NCBI GenBank assembly: GCA_002772535.1
Contig: PFDP01000004.1
Location: forward strand, 1 to 38,630
Length of the DNA stretch: 38,630 nucleotides
DNA from: Candidatus Peregrinibacteria bacterium CG10_big_fil_rev_8_21_14_0_10_36_19
GTDB taxonomy: Bacteria > Patescibacteriota > Gracilibacteria > UBA1369 > LOWO2-01-FULL-3
Direction of reading: 5' to 3'
Shown: positions 19,408-26,975 of the stretch, piece by piece
Position numbering within the stretch: position 1 is the stretch's first letter
How the letters are laid out: every line of letters begins with the position of its first letter
The notes under the pieces: model-generated
Told to the model about the DNA's origin: nothing
Database searches by the model: none
The model's input: the letters and a program-made list of their open reading frames with translations, nothing else
Program-made: the position numbers and the translations under genes

Positions 19408-19959
19408 ATGGACGGGGCAAGTTTTATGTGTTATAAGTTTTTAATAAAATTTATACGTATGGAGCGGAAAAATTGTTGTGATTTAGTTGAACTGAAGGAT
19501 GTGTTGGCAAATGACCCTGCTTATACTGAAAGTGTTAATGATTTTTTGTTTTTTAATTTTGATGGTGAGTTGGAAGATGATGTGGCATTTGATTTTGTGG
19601 ATAGATTTGTAAATTTGCTTATGGAGAGGTTTTGTAATTTTGTGAAGTTAAACCCAAAGCGCTTGAGTGAAGAATGGATTAAGCAGGATTTTATGAATCC
19701 ATTTTTTAATGATGATTCTTTTAATGCTTTTGTAGAGGAGTTGGTAGATATGGATGCAATAAATTGTTGGTCGTTGAAAAATAAATTGATTTCTATTGGG
19801 TATGCTGTTTTAGAGAAGTTTGTGAGTTTACAGGAATATGAAAAATTGAAGATGCCTTTCGAGCAGGTGATGGCTGGAAGAAGTGAGGTTGTTCAGGAGG
19901 TTTTAGCTGCTGTTACTTTGGAGCTAGAAAAAATGGGCAAGTCGGAGACGACCTCTTAG
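19408..19959 (+). CDS. Hypothetical acidic protein, 183 aa
   Basis: No family was recognised. The product is acidic and helical, rich in Phe and Asp/Glu, with four cysteines in the first two thirds and no transmembrane segment. A GGAG lies just before the ATG at 19408. The ATG at 19459 (MERKNCCDL) is an alternative that would remove a hydrophobic, unconvincing leader. The stop codon sits inside the stem of a hairpin, and a second terminator follows. Confidence 0.65.
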   Translation: MDGASFMCYKFLIKFIRMERKNCCDLVELKDVLANDPAYTESVNDFLFFNFDGELEDDVAFDFVDRFVNLLMERFCNFVKLNPKRLSEEWIKQDFMNPFFNDDSFNAFVEELVDMDAINCWSLKNKLISIGYAVLEKFVSLQEYEKLKMPFEQVMAGRSEVVQEVLAAVTLELEKMGKSETTS

Positions 19960-20409: not shown

Positions 20410-22374
20410 ATGAATAAAAATATAATTAACATAAATGGTGTAGGAATAGATGCGGAAGCTCATGATATTGAATCTATTCAACCTTCGATCAATAAAGTTA
20501 CAAATTTAATTAAAATGATTTGTGACAGGTTTATAAATTCTGGTGAGCACTCTATAAGTTTTGAGCATGTTAATGGTTTGTTTTATGCAAAATTAAATTC
20601 CGTTTCTCTAGATAGGCAAGAGCAGTTTTGTAAAAGGATGATTGATTTATTAGAAACTTTTTTTTGCTTTGATTTTCATGATCCTTCTTCTATTGCTAAT
20701 GATATTAACGAACTTGTTCATTTAATAGTTGGACAAGATGTTGGTGATTTGGGTCATGTTGGTGAAGATGTTGCAACAATTGAAGATTTTACTCGGCTAG
20801 TTTCTAAAAAGAAAAAGGAATTTGTGGCTTCAAAATTAGATGAAGTTGGTAGACCTTCCGAATTAGTTGGTTTGATTTTTGTTTCGGAAAACCAATTAGC
20901 TAAGAGCGAAGTATTACAAAGAATAGGATCTCTTGATATTGATAATCCTAGGTTAATTGAAATGTTGATAAATTCAGTTGATAAAATTAAAAAGGACCAA
21001 GTATTTAAACCTATGTTTTTAGGTATTGTTAAGTCTGTAATTAACGATTATGTAAAAGGTGAGTTTTCGGAATACATATCTTTGTTGGATCAGATAACTG
21101 TATTTTTGGAAACAATGAGAAAACGAAAAATTACTTTGGCTGATTTGAAATTATTGTCATATTTTGTTGATAATTTTTCATTTGATGAGGCTGCAGAATT
21201 AGTTAATGCTAATGATGCTTTTATGTCGAGTTTGGTTAAGTCTGTTTATAATGGTGGGCATATTGTGCGCAATGACTATGTAAGAAGGATGGAATCTTCA
21301 GCAACTTCAGAGACTTTTATTAAAGGTTTGGATGACCATGCTATGCAAAATCTTTTTAGTATTTTTATGAAAGTTGCGAATGGTGAAATTAATGTTAATG
21401 AAATTGATTTTCAGGTTGGTATTGGCGGATTTGAGCATGGCGTTCCTTTAAGGATTTTAAGCTACCTTGTTCCTAGTTTAACAATTGCTAATAGATTTTT
21501 TGCAAAATATGGTGATTCTCCAAAGATTAGCTTTTTTACTGGCCAGCACGGCGCAATTTATTGTAATGGCTTTGATAAAGAAACTGTTCAGAAAAGAACT
21601 ACTAACTCTTTTAATTTTGCAGGAGGGTTTGTAAAAAAATTCTTTCCTAATTTGGTTGGTAATTTTGAATTTGTGAATGATGTTCCTTGGGAAGAACCAA
21701 AAATGGGAGCAATGTTAGAGTATTTTGAAAAATTGCTTCTGGAAGAGTTAGGGCATGATGCTAAAATTACAAACTTAGTTGGTGAATTAAGGAAAAGAGG
21801 GGCTAGATATGGTGGAGAGGTTGGTGAAATGAATGCTCTTAAATACGCTGCTTTTCATGTTATATGTTTTAGAGATATTCCAATAATTGATGCTTATGTG
21901 AAAGGAGGAGATGTGTTTAAAGGTCGTAATTTTATTACTTTTGGTGGTAAGGCAGAATTAAGTTTTGATTTGGTAAGGAGTAAGTTGGTTGAAAAATTTA
22001 CTGTGAGTGGATTTAATGAATTTGTTGAAAGTAAAGGAAATGCTCATTTGAAGATAGTTGATGATGTTCAAAGTGCTAGCTTGGAAACTAGATCTACAGT
22101 AATTATGGATAGTGGTGATATTCCACCATACTTTTTGGTTGATAAAGTGGGAGATGTTGCGGTTGAAGATTTGAAAGCTAATAGTCCAGCAGATGTTGGA
22201 AAAGTGATAGCAAATATGGTTAGAAGTGTTATTTTATTTCATAGAACTTCAGAAGATAAAAAAACTGTAGTAGCAGCTGGATCTGTTGTTGATTCTATGG
22301 CACTACTTGCTACTGCGGTTTCTCCTTATGAATTAGCTAATTTTGTTTACAATTTTAAAAATGAATCCAAATAG
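20410..22374 (+). CDS. Large orphan protein, 654 aa, first gene of PLP/deacylase cluster
   Basis: I do not recognise this protein. It begins MNKNIININGVGID. The N-terminal 320 residues are mostly helical and charged. The second half has a more conserved-looking core: GIGGFEHGVPLRILSYLVPS, ISFFTGQHGAIYCNGF, SFNFAGGFVKKFFPNL, KYAAFHVICFRDIPIIDAYV, then a mixed alpha/beta C-terminus. The pattern (GQHG, repeated Gly turns, buried aromatics) suggests an enzyme, but no nucleotide- or metal-binding signature is certain. It has no signal peptide or membrane helix. The ATG at 20410 was chosen over a TTG at 20383, which lies inside the terminator. The stop overlaps the aminotransferase start by 14 bases. 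Confidence 0.8.
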   Translation: MNKNIININGVGIDAEAHDIESIQPSINKVTNLIKMICDRFINSGEHSISFEHVNGLFYAKLNSVSLDRQEQFCKRMIDLLETFFCFDFHDPSSIANDINELVHLIVGQDVGDLGHVGEDVATIEDFTRLVSKKKKEFVASKLDEVGRPSELVGLIFVSENQLAKSEVLQRIGSLDIDNPRLIEMLINSVDKIKKDQVFKPMFLGIVKSVINDYVKGEFSEYISLLDQITVFLETMRKRKITLADLKLLSYFVDNFSFDEAAELVNANDAFMSSLVKSVYNGGHIVRNDYVRRMESSATSETFIKGLDDHAMQNLFSIFMKVANGEINVNEIDFQVGIGGFEHGVPLRILSYLVPSLTIANRFFAKYGDSPKISFFTGQHGAIYCNGFDKETVQKRTTNSFNFAGGFVKKFFPNLVGNFEFVNDVPWEEPKMGAMLEYFEKLLLEELGHDAKITNLVGELRKRGARYGGEVGEMNALKYAAFHVICFRDIPIIDAYVKGGDVFKGRNFITFGGKAELSFDLVRSKLVEKFTVSGFNEFVESKGNAHLKIVDDVQSASLETRSTVIMDSGDIPPYFLVDKVGDVAVEDLKANSPADVGKVIANMVRSVILFHRTSEDKKTVVAAGSVVDSMALLATAVSPYELANFVYNFKNESK

Positions 22375-23623
22375 AGAAAAAATCGGACGTTCTCAAAATC
22401 TTGATTTATATGGTTTAAATATATCCAATACCAAAAAAGACTATATAGTTGATGTTGATGGAAAGGAGTATATTGATTTTTTGTCATGTGCGTCATCTTT
22501 AACTTTGGGTTATCAGCGTGAAGATTTGGTTAAGGCTTTTGTTGATCAGTGTCAAAAAGTTCCTCATACATGTACGGTATATACTTTTTCTCCTATTGTG
22601 GGGGAGTATGTTGATGCTCTTCTTGCTACTACGGAAATTGTTAATCCCAAAGTTTTATTTGGTGCTTTTGGCTCTGATTCTATTGAGAGTGCTATTAAAT
22701 CGGCTCAGGTTTTTACTGGTAAGAAAAAAATCATAGCTTTTAAAAAGGCTTATCATGGTGGGACTTGTTTGTCTTTGGCTAGTAGTGGCTTTGAGGGGTT
22801 AAAAAATAATCTTCACCTTCCAGATTATTTTTTTCATTTAGATTATCCAGATTCAGATTTGTATGAATCAACTTTAATTGCAATTGAGGAACTTTTAAAA
22901 AGCGGTGAAATTGCAGCTCTTTTAATGGAAACTATTTTGGGTGATGGAGGAGTTATTTATCCTGCGTTAGATTTTTATAAGCAAATAAAAAGTTTGTTAG
23001 AAAGATATGGAGCTCTTTTGATTTTCGATGAAATTCAATCTGGTATGGGAAGAACGGGTAAATTTTGGTCTTATGAACATTTTAATATTGTTCCTGATCT
23101 TTTTTGTACTGCTAAAGGTTTAGGTGGTGGATATGTACCTTTGAGTGCATGCATTGGAAGAGGAGATGTTATTGATGCAATGAATAATTGTCAGAATGCG
23201 TTTACATTTTCTTCTCATGCCGCGAGTTGTGCTGTTGGATTACGAGTTATTCAAGCTATATATGAAGAAAAAGTTTTAGATAATGTGATTGCTGCTAGTA
23301 AAATAATTTGTGAAGAATTTGAAGCATTAAAAGATTGTGATTTGGTCGAAGGCGTTAGGGGTGAAGGTTTAATGTTAGGTCTGGCACTTAAAAGCGAAAA
23401 ATCTTTGGGTCCTTACATTGGAAAAATTTGTTTAAAAAATGGGGTTTATGTTGGGTATTATGGAGCAAATAATAATGTGATTCGTATTCATCCTGCTTTA
23501 ACAGTTAGTGAGGAAAGTGCTAGAGAAGGAGCTAGAAGGGTTGTGAAAAGTGTTTTGGAGTTTGCTTCTGATCCTCAAAAATATTTAGCAGATGGTAATT
23601 TTAAATCTTTTTTTACTGAATAA
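22361..23623 (+). CDS. Class III PLP-dependent aminotransferase
   Basis: This 420-residue fold type I enzyme resembles 4-aminobutyrate, diaminobutyrate and ornithine aminotransferases. Visible motifs are GSDSIES at 104 (usually GSEANE, cofactor phosphate), YHGG at 131, IFDEIQSGMGRTG with PLP-pairing D223 and Q226, and TAKGLGGGYVPLSA with K252 as the Schiff-base lysine. FTFSSHAAS supplies the second-subunit Thr region. The substrate is unknown, but the family usually takes a terminal amine. The ATG at 22361 overlaps the preceding stop, and the YbaK-like gene follows after three bases, so the three genes are one transcription unit. Confidence 0.93.
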   Translation: MNPNREKIGRSQNLDLYGLNISNTKKDYIVDVDGKEYIDFLSCASSLTLGYQREDLVKAFVDQCQKVPHTCTVYTFSPIVGEYVDALLATTEIVNPKVLFGAFGSDSIESAIKSAQVFTGKKKIIAFKKAYHGGTCLSLASSGFEGLKNNLHLPDYFFHLDYPDSDLYESTLIAIEELLKSGEIAALLMETILGDGGVIYPALDFYKQIKSLLERYGALLIFDEIQSGMGRTGKFWSYEHFNIVPDLFCTAKGLGGGYVPLSACIGRGDVIDAMNNCQNAFTFSSHAASCAVGLRVIQAIYEEKVLDNVIAASKIICEEFEALKDCDLVEGVRGEGLMLGLALKSEKSLGPYIGKICLKNGVYVGYYGANNNVIRIHPALTVSEESAREGARRVVKSVLEFASDPQKYLADGNFKSFFTE

Positions 23624-23626
23624 ATT

Positions 23627-24133
23627 ATGCAAAATTCTCCAATTAGTTATATAGACTTTGTGAATGATATATCGCAGCATGGAGGGGAAATTTCGTTGGT
23701 TGAAATTGAAAATGATGTTACTAATCTAGACGATTTATCAAAATCTTTGAATTGTAAAATTGATGATCTTTATAAAACTGTTTGTTTGAATTATAAAATT
23801 GAAGGTGTAAGAAATTTAATTGCTGTAATTGTTCCTGCAGTTGCAAAAGTGGATTTGAATAAAGTGGAAAATTGTTTGGAGAATATTGTTGGAGTTAGAG
23901 TTAAATTAAAGGCTGCACAGCCTGATTTTATTTTGTCGGAAACAGGTTTTATTCCTGGAGGAATTCCACCAGTTGGATTTCAATGTAAAAGGTTTGTTGA
24001 TACTTCTATTTTTGAAAAAAATATTGTTTATGCTGGTGGTGGTAATAATCTTAGAGCGTATACTGCTTTTTCGCCAACAGTTTTGGAACAGGTTTATCCT
24101 GATATTTTGAAGGGAGATTTTATTGTTTCTTAA
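23627..24133 (+). CDS. YbaK/ProX-type aminoacyl-tRNA deacylase domain protein
   Basis: This 168-residue single-domain protein of the YbaK/aminoacyl-tRNA synthetase-associated superfamily hydrolyses mischarged aminoacyl-tRNAs in trans. Evidence is LYKTVCLNY, with K50 at the position of the catalytic lysine of YbaK, the loop TGFIPGGIPPVGF at about 106-118, and VYAGGGNNLRAYTAFSP near the end. Its place in an operon between two PLP aminotransferases is unusual, and suggests it clears tRNAs charged with a non-standard amino acid made by the cluster. That role is inference. Confidence 0.88.
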   Translation: MQNSPISYIDFVNDISQHGGEISLVEIENDVTNLDDLSKSLNCKIDDLYKTVCLNYKIEGVRNLIAVIVPAVAKVDLNKVENCLENIVGVRVKLKAAQPDFILSETGFIPGGIPPVGFQCKRFVDTSIFEKNIVYAGGGNNLRAYTAFSPTVLEQVYPDILKGDFIVS

Positions 24134-24163
24134 TTGACATTTTTTAAAGGTAGGTGGTAATTT
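24134..24163 (+). promoter_or_regulatory. Internal promoter before the class I-type aminotransferase
   Basis: TTGACA at 24134-24139, 18 bases, then TAATTT at 24158-24163 preceded by TGG. It directly follows the stop of the YbaK-like gene and would give a leader of about 26 bases. Confidence 0.5.
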
Positions 24164-24195
24164 ATTGCCTTATTTTGATAAACTTTGTTTTTTTA

Positions 24196-25593
24196 ATGAG
24201 TTTGAATAAATATGTTGATAGAATTGCTTCTACGGTAAAAGGCAATAATGAAAAAGTTGGTGATCATATAGATTTGTTTAGGCAAGTTATTGGAGCCGTG
24301 TTGGATGATGCTCAATTAAAAAAGAATTTTGATGGTGCAGCTATTAGATATGCAGCTATGTGTGGAGAGATTACAAATAGGGTTATGGCTGTATTAGGTG
24401 GTTCTGAATTTGTAGACTTATTGGCTATCGGTGATGTTAATATGCCTGCTTTTGCTGTAGAAGTTGCAGATCAAATTGTTAATGATTCTTATAGATATCA
24501 TGATCAGTTATCTAAAGATTTTGGACGTGGTTATGATTTAACATCTCAGGGGGCAGAAGCGGCAAGAAGCTCGTTTTTTGACTATGCTGATAAGTATTAT
24601 GGTTTTTCTGCTGTTCATGGTCTTAAAGAAAAGATGGTTGAAAACTCTACAATTGTTGGAGGTGGAATGAGAGGGTTAGATGATATTGCTACTGCGATGA
24701 TAAGAAATGCTGACAAATTAGGTTTAAAAAATAGATTTATTAGCCCAGATAATAGTTTTGGTACTTGGCATTCCATTGTTAATTTAAGAACTCATGGTGG
24801 ACATAGTGTTCATACTTTAAAAACAGGTCAGGATAATTTTTTGCATCTTTCTGCTACTAATATTGATAAGTTTTATGATGGAGTGGAAACTCCTATGGAA
24901 ACGGTTCAAGATGTTTGGTGTATTACGCCCGTTGGTAATCCATCAGGAACTTTTATGTCTGGCGATCAATTAGCATCTACTTGTGAAGCTATTGTGAATA
25001 GAAATCCTAATGCTATTATTTTGCTTGATTCTACTTATGTACGATTGTTGAGCCCAGGTAGATCTAAAGCGTTAGTGGAGGGTGTTTTAAGCAACCCTTC
25101 TGTTATTGATAGAGTAGTTTTTCTTGATAGCTTTTCAAAAACTCATGGTTTTTGTGGTGAAAGAATAGGTTTGTATTTTGCAGCGAATAAGGAAGTTTTT
25201 GATCCTATTCAAACTGTAAATATGACTCTTTCTGCTGGTAATGGTCGTTATAAAGACGCTTTAGTAATGGCAATTTGTAATTCTAGTGAGGAAAGAGAAT
25301 TAATTTTGCAAGAAGTACATGATTTTTGGATGAAGGAAAGAAAGGGCCTTTTTGATAAACTTATTACTTCTGGATCTTTTGGCCATTTGTTTGATGAGCA
25401 ACAACTTCATGTTGTTGATGAGCAGATGGATGAACCAGGATTGTATTTATTTTTGAAATTAAAAGAAGGTGTGACTGGCTTGGATGTTTTGAAAGAAACT
25501 CATTGTCTTGGTGTTGAAACTAAAATGGGGGACGGCAATTATATTAGATTTGCGGTTGGAAAGATTAGTGAACCTAGATTTTCTCAGAAATAG
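24196..25593 (+). CDS. Class I/II-type PLP aminotransferase with N-terminal extension
   Basis: The protein has 465 residues. The PLP fold is clear from about residue 150: NPSG at 248-251, ILLDSTYVRLL with D278 and Y281, FLDSFSKTHGFCGERIG with Schiff-base K315 and R323, and YIRFAVG with the substrate carboxylate Arg near the end. The first 110-130 residues are helical and longer than the usual family N-terminus. The ATG at 24196 is preferred; upstream codons read a hydrophobic run overlapping the promoter. The best match is an aspartate aminotransferase-like or amino acid C-C/C-S lyase-like enzyme. It closes the cluster begun at 20410. Confidence 0.9.
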   Translation: MSLNKYVDRIASTVKGNNEKVGDHIDLFRQVIGAVLDDAQLKKNFDGAAIRYAAMCGEITNRVMAVLGGSEFVDLLAIGDVNMPAFAVEVADQIVNDSYRYHDQLSKDFGRGYDLTSQGAEAARSSFFDYADKYYGFSAVHGLKEKMVENSTIVGGGMRGLDDIATAMIRNADKLGLKNRFISPDNSFGTWHSIVNLRTHGGHSVHTLKTGQDNFLHLSATNIDKFYDGVETPMETVQDVWCITPVGNPSGTFMSGDQLASTCEAIVNRNPNAIILLDSTYVRLLSPGRSKALVEGVLSNPSVIDRVVFLDSFSKTHGFCGERIGLYFAANKEVFDPIQTVNMTLSAGNGRYKDALVMAICNSSEERELILQEVHDFWMKERKGLFDKLITSGSFGHLFDEQQLHVVDEQMDEPGLYLFLKLKEGVTGLDVLKETHCLGVETKMGDGNYIRFAVGKISEPRFSQK

Positions 25594-26585: not shown

Positions 26586-26975
26586 ATGAAGAAATTTATT
26601 GCTTTAGGTGCTTTGAGTGCACTTTTCCTTGTGGCTTGTGCCAGCGCTTTTAAGACTGGTGATACTGTGTGGGCTGAATGGTCTACTGATTCTTGGTGGC
26701 ATGGTTCTGTTGATGAAAGTTGTGAAAAAGATGCTAAGAAAGGATGGCATGTTACTTTTGATGACGGTGACCAAGGTTGTTATGTAGCTGGTGAAATTTT
26801 CCACGATGCTACACCTGCATCTCCTCTAGCTGTTGGTGCTCAGGTTCTTGCTTTCTGGACAGATACTCACTATTACTCTGCTGAAATTATTGAAGTAACA
26901 GAAACTGGTTATAAAGTTAAGTTTACTGATGGGGTAGAGAAAGAAGTAACATTTGAACAAGTTGTTGCTAGATAA
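26586..26975 (+). CDS. Lipoprotein with two tandem Tudor/Agenet-like domains
   Basis: The protein has 129 residues, with a signal peptide and lipobox LVAC (C18). Two similar repeats follow: FKTGDTVWAEWSTDSWWHGSVDE ending in WHVTFDDGDQGCY (about 22-66), and VGAQVLAFWTDTHYYSAEIIEV ending in YKVKFTDGVEKEV (about 82-124). Each reads as a small SH3-like Tudor barrel, with aromatic residues at the usual cage positions. Tudor domains are best known inside eukaryotic cells, so use on a bacterial surface is unusual. The ligand is unknown. A bidirectional terminator follows. Confidence 0.8.
   Translation: MKKFIALGALSALFLVACASAFKTGDTVWAEWSTDSWWHGSVDESCEKDAKKGWHVTFDDGDQGCYVAGEIFHDATPASPLAVGAQVLAFWTDTHYYSAEIIEVTETGYKVKFTDGVEKEVTFEQVVAR

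What the first reader, a model, noticed from the sequence alone, without database searches (positions are those of the whole stretch)
20410..25593. Unexplained cluster: 654-aa orphan, two PLP aminotransferases and a tRNA deacylase
The first three genes are joined by a 14-base overlap and a 3-base gap, and the fourth follows within 62 bases with an internal promoter. Two different PLP folds (class III with K252, class I-type with K315) flank a YbaK-type aminoacyl-tRNA deacylase (K50, GGIPPVG loop), preceded by a large protein with no family I recognise. A plausible reading is synthesis of a non-standard amino acid or small metabolite, with the deacylase protecting host tRNAs from mischarging. 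Biosynthesis is unusual for a reduced CPR-like genome, and this gene combination matches no pathway I know.
Basis: partly seen in the sequence, partly recalled or inferred. Interest (0 to 1): 0.8.

Follow-up and report, generated by a model that had tools for sequence, protein, structure and literature searches.

The report
Synthetase-like protein paired with racemases
The "orphan" gene belongs to an undescribed family built like the enzymes that load tyrosine onto tRNA but lacking their ATP-binding signatures; it nearly always sits beside a gene for an amino-acid racemase, and sometimes beside or fused to a spare tRNA-loading enzyme, which suggests a non-ribosomal way of using D-amino acids in these tiny bacteria.

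Summary
The four genes are real and laid out as described; the "internal promoter" is not supported. They are not one conserved cluster. Genes 1 and 2 (orphan + class III PLP enzyme) form a conserved overlapping pair, also found in a distant Gracilibacteria genome that reads TGA as glycine. The YbaK-type deacylase is linked only here. The class I-type aminotransferase stands alone elsewhere.

The orphan is the main finding. Its C-terminal half defines a family with no match in Pfam or NCBIfam (22 loci, 21 of 353 genomes of the class). AlphaFold2 gives it the class Ic aminoacyl-tRNA synthetase (TyrRS/TrpRS) fold, but HIGH and KMSKS are missing, as in cyclodipeptide synthases. In 18 of 22 loci the adjacent gene is an amino-acid racemase homologue: PLP class III, CntK-like histidine racemase, or Asp/Glu-type. 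Only 1 of 243 non-adjacent ORFs is one. Histidine-racemase loci usually also carry a HisRS, shown to be a second copy in three genomes; one Asp/Glu-type member is fused to an intact TyrRS.

Best mechanism (inferred, about 0.45): an aminoacyl-tRNA-dependent amide or cyclodipeptide synthase using D-amino acids. No activity has been shown.

The parts
20410..22374 (+). Orphan gene, 654 aa. Residues about 1-300: helical, low-confidence N-terminal region. Residues about 300-654: class Ic aaRS-like domain.
   Evidence: No Pfam or NCBIfam match; AF2 plus structure comparison; 22-member family
21307..22371 (+). Class Ic aminoacyl-tRNA-synthetase-like domain (residues 300-654)
   Evidence: pLDDT mostly 70-93 from residue 301; VIA Z 17.6 to yeast TyrRS, 273 aligned, rmsd 4.1
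21445..21462 (+). PLRILS (346-351), at the place of the HIGH motif; HIGH absent, commonly Arg instead
   Evidence: Family alignment; register from hhalign against TyrRS/TrpRS, not statistically significant
21565..21567 (+). N386, conserved in 21 of 22 family members
21844..21858 (+). Y479-AAF-H483; Tyr invariant and His/Asn at +4 across 22 members, at the place of the amino-acid-binding YxxxQ of TyrRS and Y178xxxE182 of CDPS (inferred)
21940..21957 (+). FGGKAE (511-516), GGxxE motif at the place of TyrRS GGxDQ (Glu invariant)
22120..22134 (+). IPPYF (571-575), GxxPxY motif at the place of KMSKS (Pro invariant; KMSKS absent)
22361..23623 (+). Class III PLP enzyme, 420 aa, K252; most likely an amino-acid racemase
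   Evidence: PF00202; best PDB matches are archaeal BAR and Ala/Ser racemases; 58% identical partner in G141
23627..24133 (+). YbaK/ProX-type aminoacyl-tRNA deacylase, 168 aa; closely spaced on the same strand, but linkage not conserved elsewhere
   Evidence: PF04073 51.2 bits against cut-off 25.5; PDB match to YbaK 9e-7
24196..25593 (+). Class I-type aminotransferase, 465 aa, K315; probably NOT part of the system
   Evidence: Orthologues at 38-47% identity in six related genomes, standing alone

Best explanation
Genes 1 and 2 are one form of an undescribed two-gene module: an amino-acid racemase plus a class Ic aminoacyl-tRNA-synthetase-like protein that lacks the ATP-binding motifs. SHOWN computationally: the fold (AF2 on two distant members), the missing motifs, and the racemase pairing across three unrelated racemase superfamilies. 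ALSO SHOWN: an aaRS gene is linked in several loci (a second HisRS, or a fused TyrRS). INFERRED mechanism: the racemase supplies a D-amino acid. The synthetase-like enzyme does not activate an amino acid with ATP. It takes an aminoacyl group already activated on tRNA, charged by the housekeeping or the dedicated extra aaRS, and transfers it to the D-amino acid or to a derived amine. The product would be a D-amino-acid-containing dipeptide, cyclodipeptide or amide. In this genome the YbaK-type protein may clear mischarged or D-aminoacyl-tRNA that arises as a side effect; the class I-type aminotransferase is a neighbour without a role in the module.
For: Pairing: 18 of 22 family loci have a racemase homologue immediately adjacent, on the same strand, overlapping or within 9 nt, against 1 of 243 non-adjacent ORFs in the same stretches. 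In the tree, partner type follows subclade: class III pair 98/99, histidine-racemase clade 99/98, main Asp/Glu clade 100/99. Fold: window orphan, VIA Z 17.6 to TyrRS; another member (G692, pLDDT 89.7, pTM 0.91), Z 16.9 over 241 of 296 residues, with all 50 listed rows TyrRS-type. Motifs: HIGH and KMSKS absent in all 22; Y, GGxxE and PxY conserved. aaRS link: a second HisRS near the gene in G083, G094 and G103, with another HisRS elsewhere in each genome; a HisRS also beside it in G685; fusion to a motif-intact TyrRS (297 bits, cut-off 113.8) in G273, followed by a racemase and prephenate dehydratase- and dehydrogenase-like genes. The window genome also has two HisRS genes, the second 56% identical to the G083 copy. 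Precedents: CDPSs share this fold and lack the ATP motifs (PMC5935735); SbzA, an extra IleRS copy in a biosynthetic cluster, uses Ile-tRNA to acylate a small molecule (PMC12945691).
Against: No significant sequence similarity to TyrRS, TrpRS or CDPS, so the relationship rests on predicted structure. By motif alignment the position of the CDPS acceptor Ser (AlbC S37) is mostly Gly, so the CDPS covalent mechanism is not obviously available. Four loci have no racemase (G057, G070, G032, G105). Most Asp/Glu-type loci show no linked aaRS. The HisRS2 type occurs in 75 of 241 class genomes, so its presence in the window genome is weak evidence. No activity data exist.
Confidence: 0.45

Rival explanations
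1. The orphan is an ATP-dependent ligase with rewritten motifs: it adenylates the D-amino acid made by its partner and passes it to an amine or to another carrier.
For: The amino-acid pocket motifs look kept (Y...H/N, GGxxE), and new residues (Arg at HIGH, PxY at KMSKS) are themselves largely conserved. Pairing with racemases fits a D-amino-acid substrate directly.
Against: Both classic ATP motifs are absent in all 22 members. It does not explain the linked second HisRS or the fused, motif-intact TyrRS.
Confidence: 0.2
2. The orphan is a quality-control factor: it recognises D-aminoacyl-tRNA or mischarged tRNA that arises because the neighbouring racemase makes D-amino acids, and the cluster is otherwise D-amino-acid salvage or supply.
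For: The YbaK-type deacylase next to the window pair; extra synthetases nearby; an amino-acid-oxidase-type FAD gene near the G032 member.
Against: A class Ic synthetase fold with a conserved amino-acid pocket is not a known deacylase. The YbaK linkage occurs at one locus only.
Confidence: 0.15
3. The orphan is an amino-acid-sensing subunit of the racemase, as the HisRS-like HisZ is for ATP phosphoribosyltransferase.
For: Tight gene coupling, 4-nt overlaps at most loci; catalytic aaRS motifs lost.
Against: One subunit family would have to contact three unrelated racemase folds; conserved active-site-like residues suggest chemistry; the aaRS linkage is unexplained.
Confidence: 0.12
4. One reading: all four genes form one pathway for a non-standard amino acid, with the deacylase as self-protection.
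For: Short gaps on one strand; genes 1 and 2 are linked to amino-acid chemistry.
Against: Genes 3 and 4 are absent from the G141 copy, and their relatives lie elsewhere, unlinked.
Confidence: 0.08

Closest known systems
Cyclodipeptide synthases (AlbC, YvmC, Rv2275)
   Same: Class Ic aaRS catalytic fold, ATP motifs absent, Tyr followed by a polar residue four later at the aminoacyl pocket
   Different: Longer (about 290-650 aa); no CDPS profile match apart from one member at E 0.038; acceptor Ser not at the expected place by motif; adjacent racemase and extra aaRS genes
[quoted passage not shown]
   Same: Whole-domain fold, Z about 17, helical C-terminal part included
   Different: HIGH and KMSKS absent; no PF00579 match; each family genome checked has ordinary TyrRS/TrpRS-type genes besides
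SbzA, IleRS-like aminoacyl transferase (PMC12945691)
   Same: Extra class I aaRS-like protein in a biosynthetic locus; uses aminoacyl-tRNA as acyl donor to a small molecule (proposed here, shown for SbzA)
   Different: SbzA is an IleRS copy with residual charging activity; the orphan family has lost the ATP motifs
Pyrococcus horikoshii broad-specificity (BAR) and Ala/Ser racemases (PLP fold type I)
   Same: Closest solved relatives of the class III gene: 204 and 198 bits against 161 for acetylornithine aminotransferase; share THIGHA/TFSSHA and YG...NV.RI-type stretches
   Different: Distant; substrate of the window enzyme unknown
Histidine racemases CntK (S. aureus) and HisR (F. nucleatum)
   Same: Partner gene in five family loci; catalytic Cys pair and the Glu residues proposed to bind histidine present (PMC11602996)
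   Different: Below curated NCBIfam cut-offs; linked to HisRS and the orphan family, not to staphylopine genes

Membership tests
Class Ic aminoacyl-tRNA synthetase (TyrRS/TrpRS) | Class Ic catalytic fold | tested here: met
   VIA Z 17.6 (273 aligned, rmsd 4.1) and Z 16.9 (241 aligned, rmsd 3.4) on two predicted models; listed rows are TyrRS/TrpRS-type
Class Ic aminoacyl-tRNA synthetase (TyrRS/TrpRS) | HIGH and KMSKS ATP-binding motifs | tested here: not met
   Neither motif in any of 22 members; R and PxY commonly stand at those places
Class Ic aminoacyl-tRNA synthetase (TyrRS/TrpRS) | Recognised by PF00579 or TIGR00234 | tested here: not met
   Pfam scan of 11 members at E<=10 and NCBIfam scan of 22 members at E<=0.1; only the fused C-terminal TyrRS of G273 matches
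Cyclodipeptide synthase | Class Ic aaRS-like fold without ATP motifs | tested here: met
   As above; definition from PMC5935735
Cyclodipeptide synthase | Recognised by a CDPS profile | tested here: not met
   No CDPS family in the Pfam scan; one weak NCBIfam hit, NF052540 at E 0.038, for 1 of 22 members; hhalign P 0.3
Cyclodipeptide synthase | Acceptor Ser (AlbC S37) at the end of the first strand | tested here: inconclusive
   Position is mostly Gly by motif alignment, but the alignment is not statistically supported
Cyclodipeptide synthase | Makes cyclodipeptides from two aminoacyl-tRNAs | not testable with these tools
   Needs biochemistry
Amino-acid racemase of PLP fold type I (BAR/ASR) | Class III fold with PLP lysine | tested here: met
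   PF00202 275.7 bits; K252 in AKGLGGG
Amino-acid racemase of PLP fold type I (BAR/ASR) | Closer to racemases than to transaminases | tested here: inconclusive
   Top two PDB matches are racemases, but no NCBIfam equivalog cut-off was reached
YbaK/ProX trans-editing deacylase | tRNA_edit domain with catalytic Lys and GGxxPxG loop | tested here: met
   PF04073 over its cut-off; K50; GGIPPVG
YbaK/ProX trans-editing deacylase | YbaK Cys-tRNA(Pro) deacylase equivalog | tested here: not met
   31.1 bits against a cut-off of 153.25: a divergent member, specificity unknown

The most novel reading that the evidence does not exclude
An undescribed non-ribosomal system of Gracilibacteria-class CPR bacteria: a residue-specific racemase, an ATP-motif-less class Ic aaRS-like enzyme and, in several lineages, a dedicated second aaRS for the same amino acid (His, Tyr) together join a tRNA-activated L-amino acid to a D-amino acid. 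The system would have diversified by swapping racemase superfamilies.
Probability: 0.35. Interest if true: 0.9.

Novelty: new variant of a known kind. Interest (0 to 1): 0.75.

Why it matters
CPR bacteria are thought to make almost nothing themselves. A conserved racemase-plus-synthetase-like module would be a rare biosynthetic capacity in genomes of about 1 Mb, possibly yielding D-amino-acid dipeptides or diketopiperazines that act on hosts or neighbours. It would also be a second escape of a class Ic aaRS fold from protein synthesis, besides cyclodipeptide synthases. The linked racemases and spare synthetases name likely substrates (His, Tyr), so the enzyme family is directly testable.

Tried and rejected
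(1) Four-gene cluster: rejected, genes 3 and 4 are not linked elsewhere. (2) Opine-metallophore (CntL/nicotianamine-synthase-like) reading of the orphan, prompted by the CntK-like neighbours: dropped after both structure searches gave only TyrRS/TrpRS-type rows in the lists. (3) Sequence proof of homology to TyrRS, TrpRS or CDPS: hhalign with 11- and 22-member profiles and shuffled pairwise scores were not significant; some registers agree with the fold, no more. CDPS chains were not among the rows listed, which says nothing either way. (4) Searches with the full-length orphan in genome contigs, viral contigs, plasmids and phages found nothing; nor did a second family member in plasmids and phages. 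The pattern search with the 22-member alignment could not be run. (5) HisRS2 as a specific marker of the module: weakened, the type is found in 75 of 241 class genomes. (6) Internal promoter: not supported. (7) Literature: no description of such a pairing found in the open-access library.
Full report
Observation. Pfam confirms PF00202, PF04073 and PF00155, and nothing for the orphan. The internal promoter is not supported: 18 promoter-like sites in the region against 23.5 in shuffles, none in the gap. The window is the whole of contig 9 of a 1.07-Mb, 99%-complete genome, G000.

Are the four genes a unit? Clear orthologues of the class I-type aminotransferase (38-47% identity) occur in six other genomes of the order, G050, G054, G068, G077, G014 and G061, and none of the fetched stretches around them carries the other three genes. 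Deacylase relatives in the class are about 30-40% identical and scattered; one of them lies inside a longer ORF of about 550 aa. The orphan and the class III gene, in contrast, occur together in G141, a genome of the same class that reads TGA as Gly (contig record titled Candidatus Gracilibacteria McBI.71). There a 610-aa homologue (27% identity overall, 34% in the C-terminal half) overlaps by 11 nt a class III gene that is 58% identical. So the conserved unit is genes 1 and 2.

The orphan family. Iterated profile searches over the order, the phylum sample and the class gave 22 loci in 21 of 353 class genomes, plus a truncated one in G442. Members range from about 290 to 650 aa (one is fused to a longer protein) and share only the C-terminal domain of the window protein. 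No member matched a Pfam or NCBIfam family meaningfully; the window protein and two relatives matched nothing meaningful in PHROGs. The tree groups members by partner gene: the class III pair 98/99, five histidine-racemase members 99/98, eight Asp/Glu-type members 100/99; long branches make the deep order unsure.

Fold. AlphaFold2 on the full window protein with 11 sequences gave a good C-terminal domain (residues 301-654, mostly pLDDT 70-93) and a poor N-terminal region. Foldseek's best matches are TyrRS (2cyb, E 6e-5); VIA-align 2 gives Z 17.6 to yeast TyrRS, 273 residues, rmsd 4.1. A second model, of the 296-aa member from G692 with 22 sequences, has mean pLDDT 89.7 and pTM 0.91; its listed matches are all TyrRS or TrpRS types, Z up to 16.9 over 241 residues, rmsd 3.4. 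The fold is therefore class Ic aminoacyl-tRNA synthetase. Sequence comparison does not reach significance, so common descent with TyrRS or with cyclodipeptide synthases is likely but not proven.

Motifs. In the register suggested by the strand pattern and by one hhalign alignment, the HIGH site commonly reads P-[LV]-R-[IL]-x-[SA] (window PLRILS, 346-351) and the KMSKS site reads G-x-x-P-x-Y (window GDIPPY). Neither ATP motif is present in any of 22 members. Y479 is invariant, with His or Asn four residues on; GGxxE (511-516) is conserved with an invariant Glu; N386 is kept in 21 of 22. From general knowledge of the families, these places correspond to the amino-acid-binding YxxxQ and GGxDQ of TyrRS and to Y178/E182 of the CDPS AlbC; this mapping is inference. 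The pattern, a class Ic fold without ATP motifs, is what sets cyclodipeptide synthases apart structurally (PMC5935735). But the AlbC acceptor Ser is not at its place by motif, and CDPS profiles do not recognise the family (one member at E 0.038). I do not file it as a CDPS.

Partners. In 18 of 22 loci the next gene, on the same strand and overlapping or within 9 nt, is a homologue of an amino-acid racemase. Among 243 non-adjacent ORFs of the same stretches there is one. The racemases belong to three unrelated superfamilies: class III PLP (window, G141); two-Cys CntK/HisR-like histidine racemases (G083, G094, G103, G169, G685), with the catalytic Cys pair and the Glu residues proposed to bind histidine (PMC11602996); two-Cys Asp/Glu-type racemases (11 loci; those scanned are above the TIGR00035 cut-off except the divergent G130 copy). 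The class III gene of the window has as its closest solved relatives the archaeal broad-specificity and Ala/Ser racemases, 204 and 198 bits, against 161 for acetylornithine aminotransferase; it shares with the broad-specificity enzyme an HA where aminotransferases have NP, and with both a YG/FG...NV.RI pattern where acetylornithine aminotransferase has PAGNNTIRF. It also takes the racemase's place in the gene pair. I read it as a racemase; its substrate is unknown.

Synthetase link. G083, G094 and G103 each have two HisRS genes, and the second one lies within a few genes of the orphan family member and its histidine racemase; G685 has a HisRS in the same arrangement (its genome-wide HisRS count was not checked). 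In G273 the family domain is fused to a complete TyrRS with intact HIGH and KMSK motifs (tyrS 297 bits, cut-off 113.8), followed by a racemase gene and prephenate dehydratase- and dehydrogenase-like genes; that genome has three TyrRS/TrpRS-type genes where most others checked have two. The window genome has a second HisRS on another contig, 56% identical to the G083 copy and about 26-28% to housekeeping copies of the other type, but this type is common in the class, so this is weak.

Mechanism. The three facts together, racemase, aaRS fold without ATP motifs, spare cognate aaRS, fit an enzyme that takes its activated substrate from tRNA and joins it to a D-amino acid or derived amine. There are precedents for both halves: CDPSs, and SbzA, an extra IleRS copy that uses Ile-tRNA to acylate altemicidin (PMC12945691). 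Everything beyond fold, motifs and gene order is inferred. Rivals: an ATP-dependent D-amino-acid ligase with rewritten motifs; a tRNA quality-control factor; a regulatory subunit of the racemase.

Limits. Neighbourhood counts are not phylogenetically independent, but the association recurs with three unrelated racemase folds. The N-terminal 300 residues of the window protein remain unexplained.

Noticed in passing
L171:2905-5337 (G273): Single 810-aa ORF (TGA = Gly): ATP-motif-less aaRS-like domain fused to a motif-intact TyrRS with C-terminal S4-like region, beside a racemase and two prephenate-pathway genes.
   Followed up: partly
L177:1580-7463 (G069): HisRS2 next to a CntK-like histidine racemase fused to a GNAT domain, a D-Ala-D-Ala dipeptidase-type M15 peptidase, an aromatic/histidine ammonia-lyase-type gene and an AstE/AspA-type deacylase, without an orphan-family gene in the stretch: another histidine/D-amino-acid locus.
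   Followed up: partly
L080:8356-8856 and L165:6163-6681: Pyruvoyl-dependent arginine-decarboxylase-type gene (PF01862) directly after the orphan-family gene in two histidine-type loci; might supply an amine acceptor.
   Followed up: no
L079:303-1133 and L177:7629-8237: SLOG-family (LDcluster4/LSDAT) gene beside HisRS2 plus histidine racemase in two genomes.
   Followed up: no
L168:10386-11369 (G679): A third TyrRS/TrpRS-type gene (TrpRS-like) about 3.5 kb from the orphan-family gene on the same contig; the genome is 6% contaminated.
   Followed up: no
window 26586-26975: Small protein with a signal-like N-terminus and Tudor-like domains (PF18115 1.4e-8), unusual in bacteria.
   Followed up: no
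window 19408-19959: 183-aa protein without a family match just upstream of the orphan.
   Followed up: no
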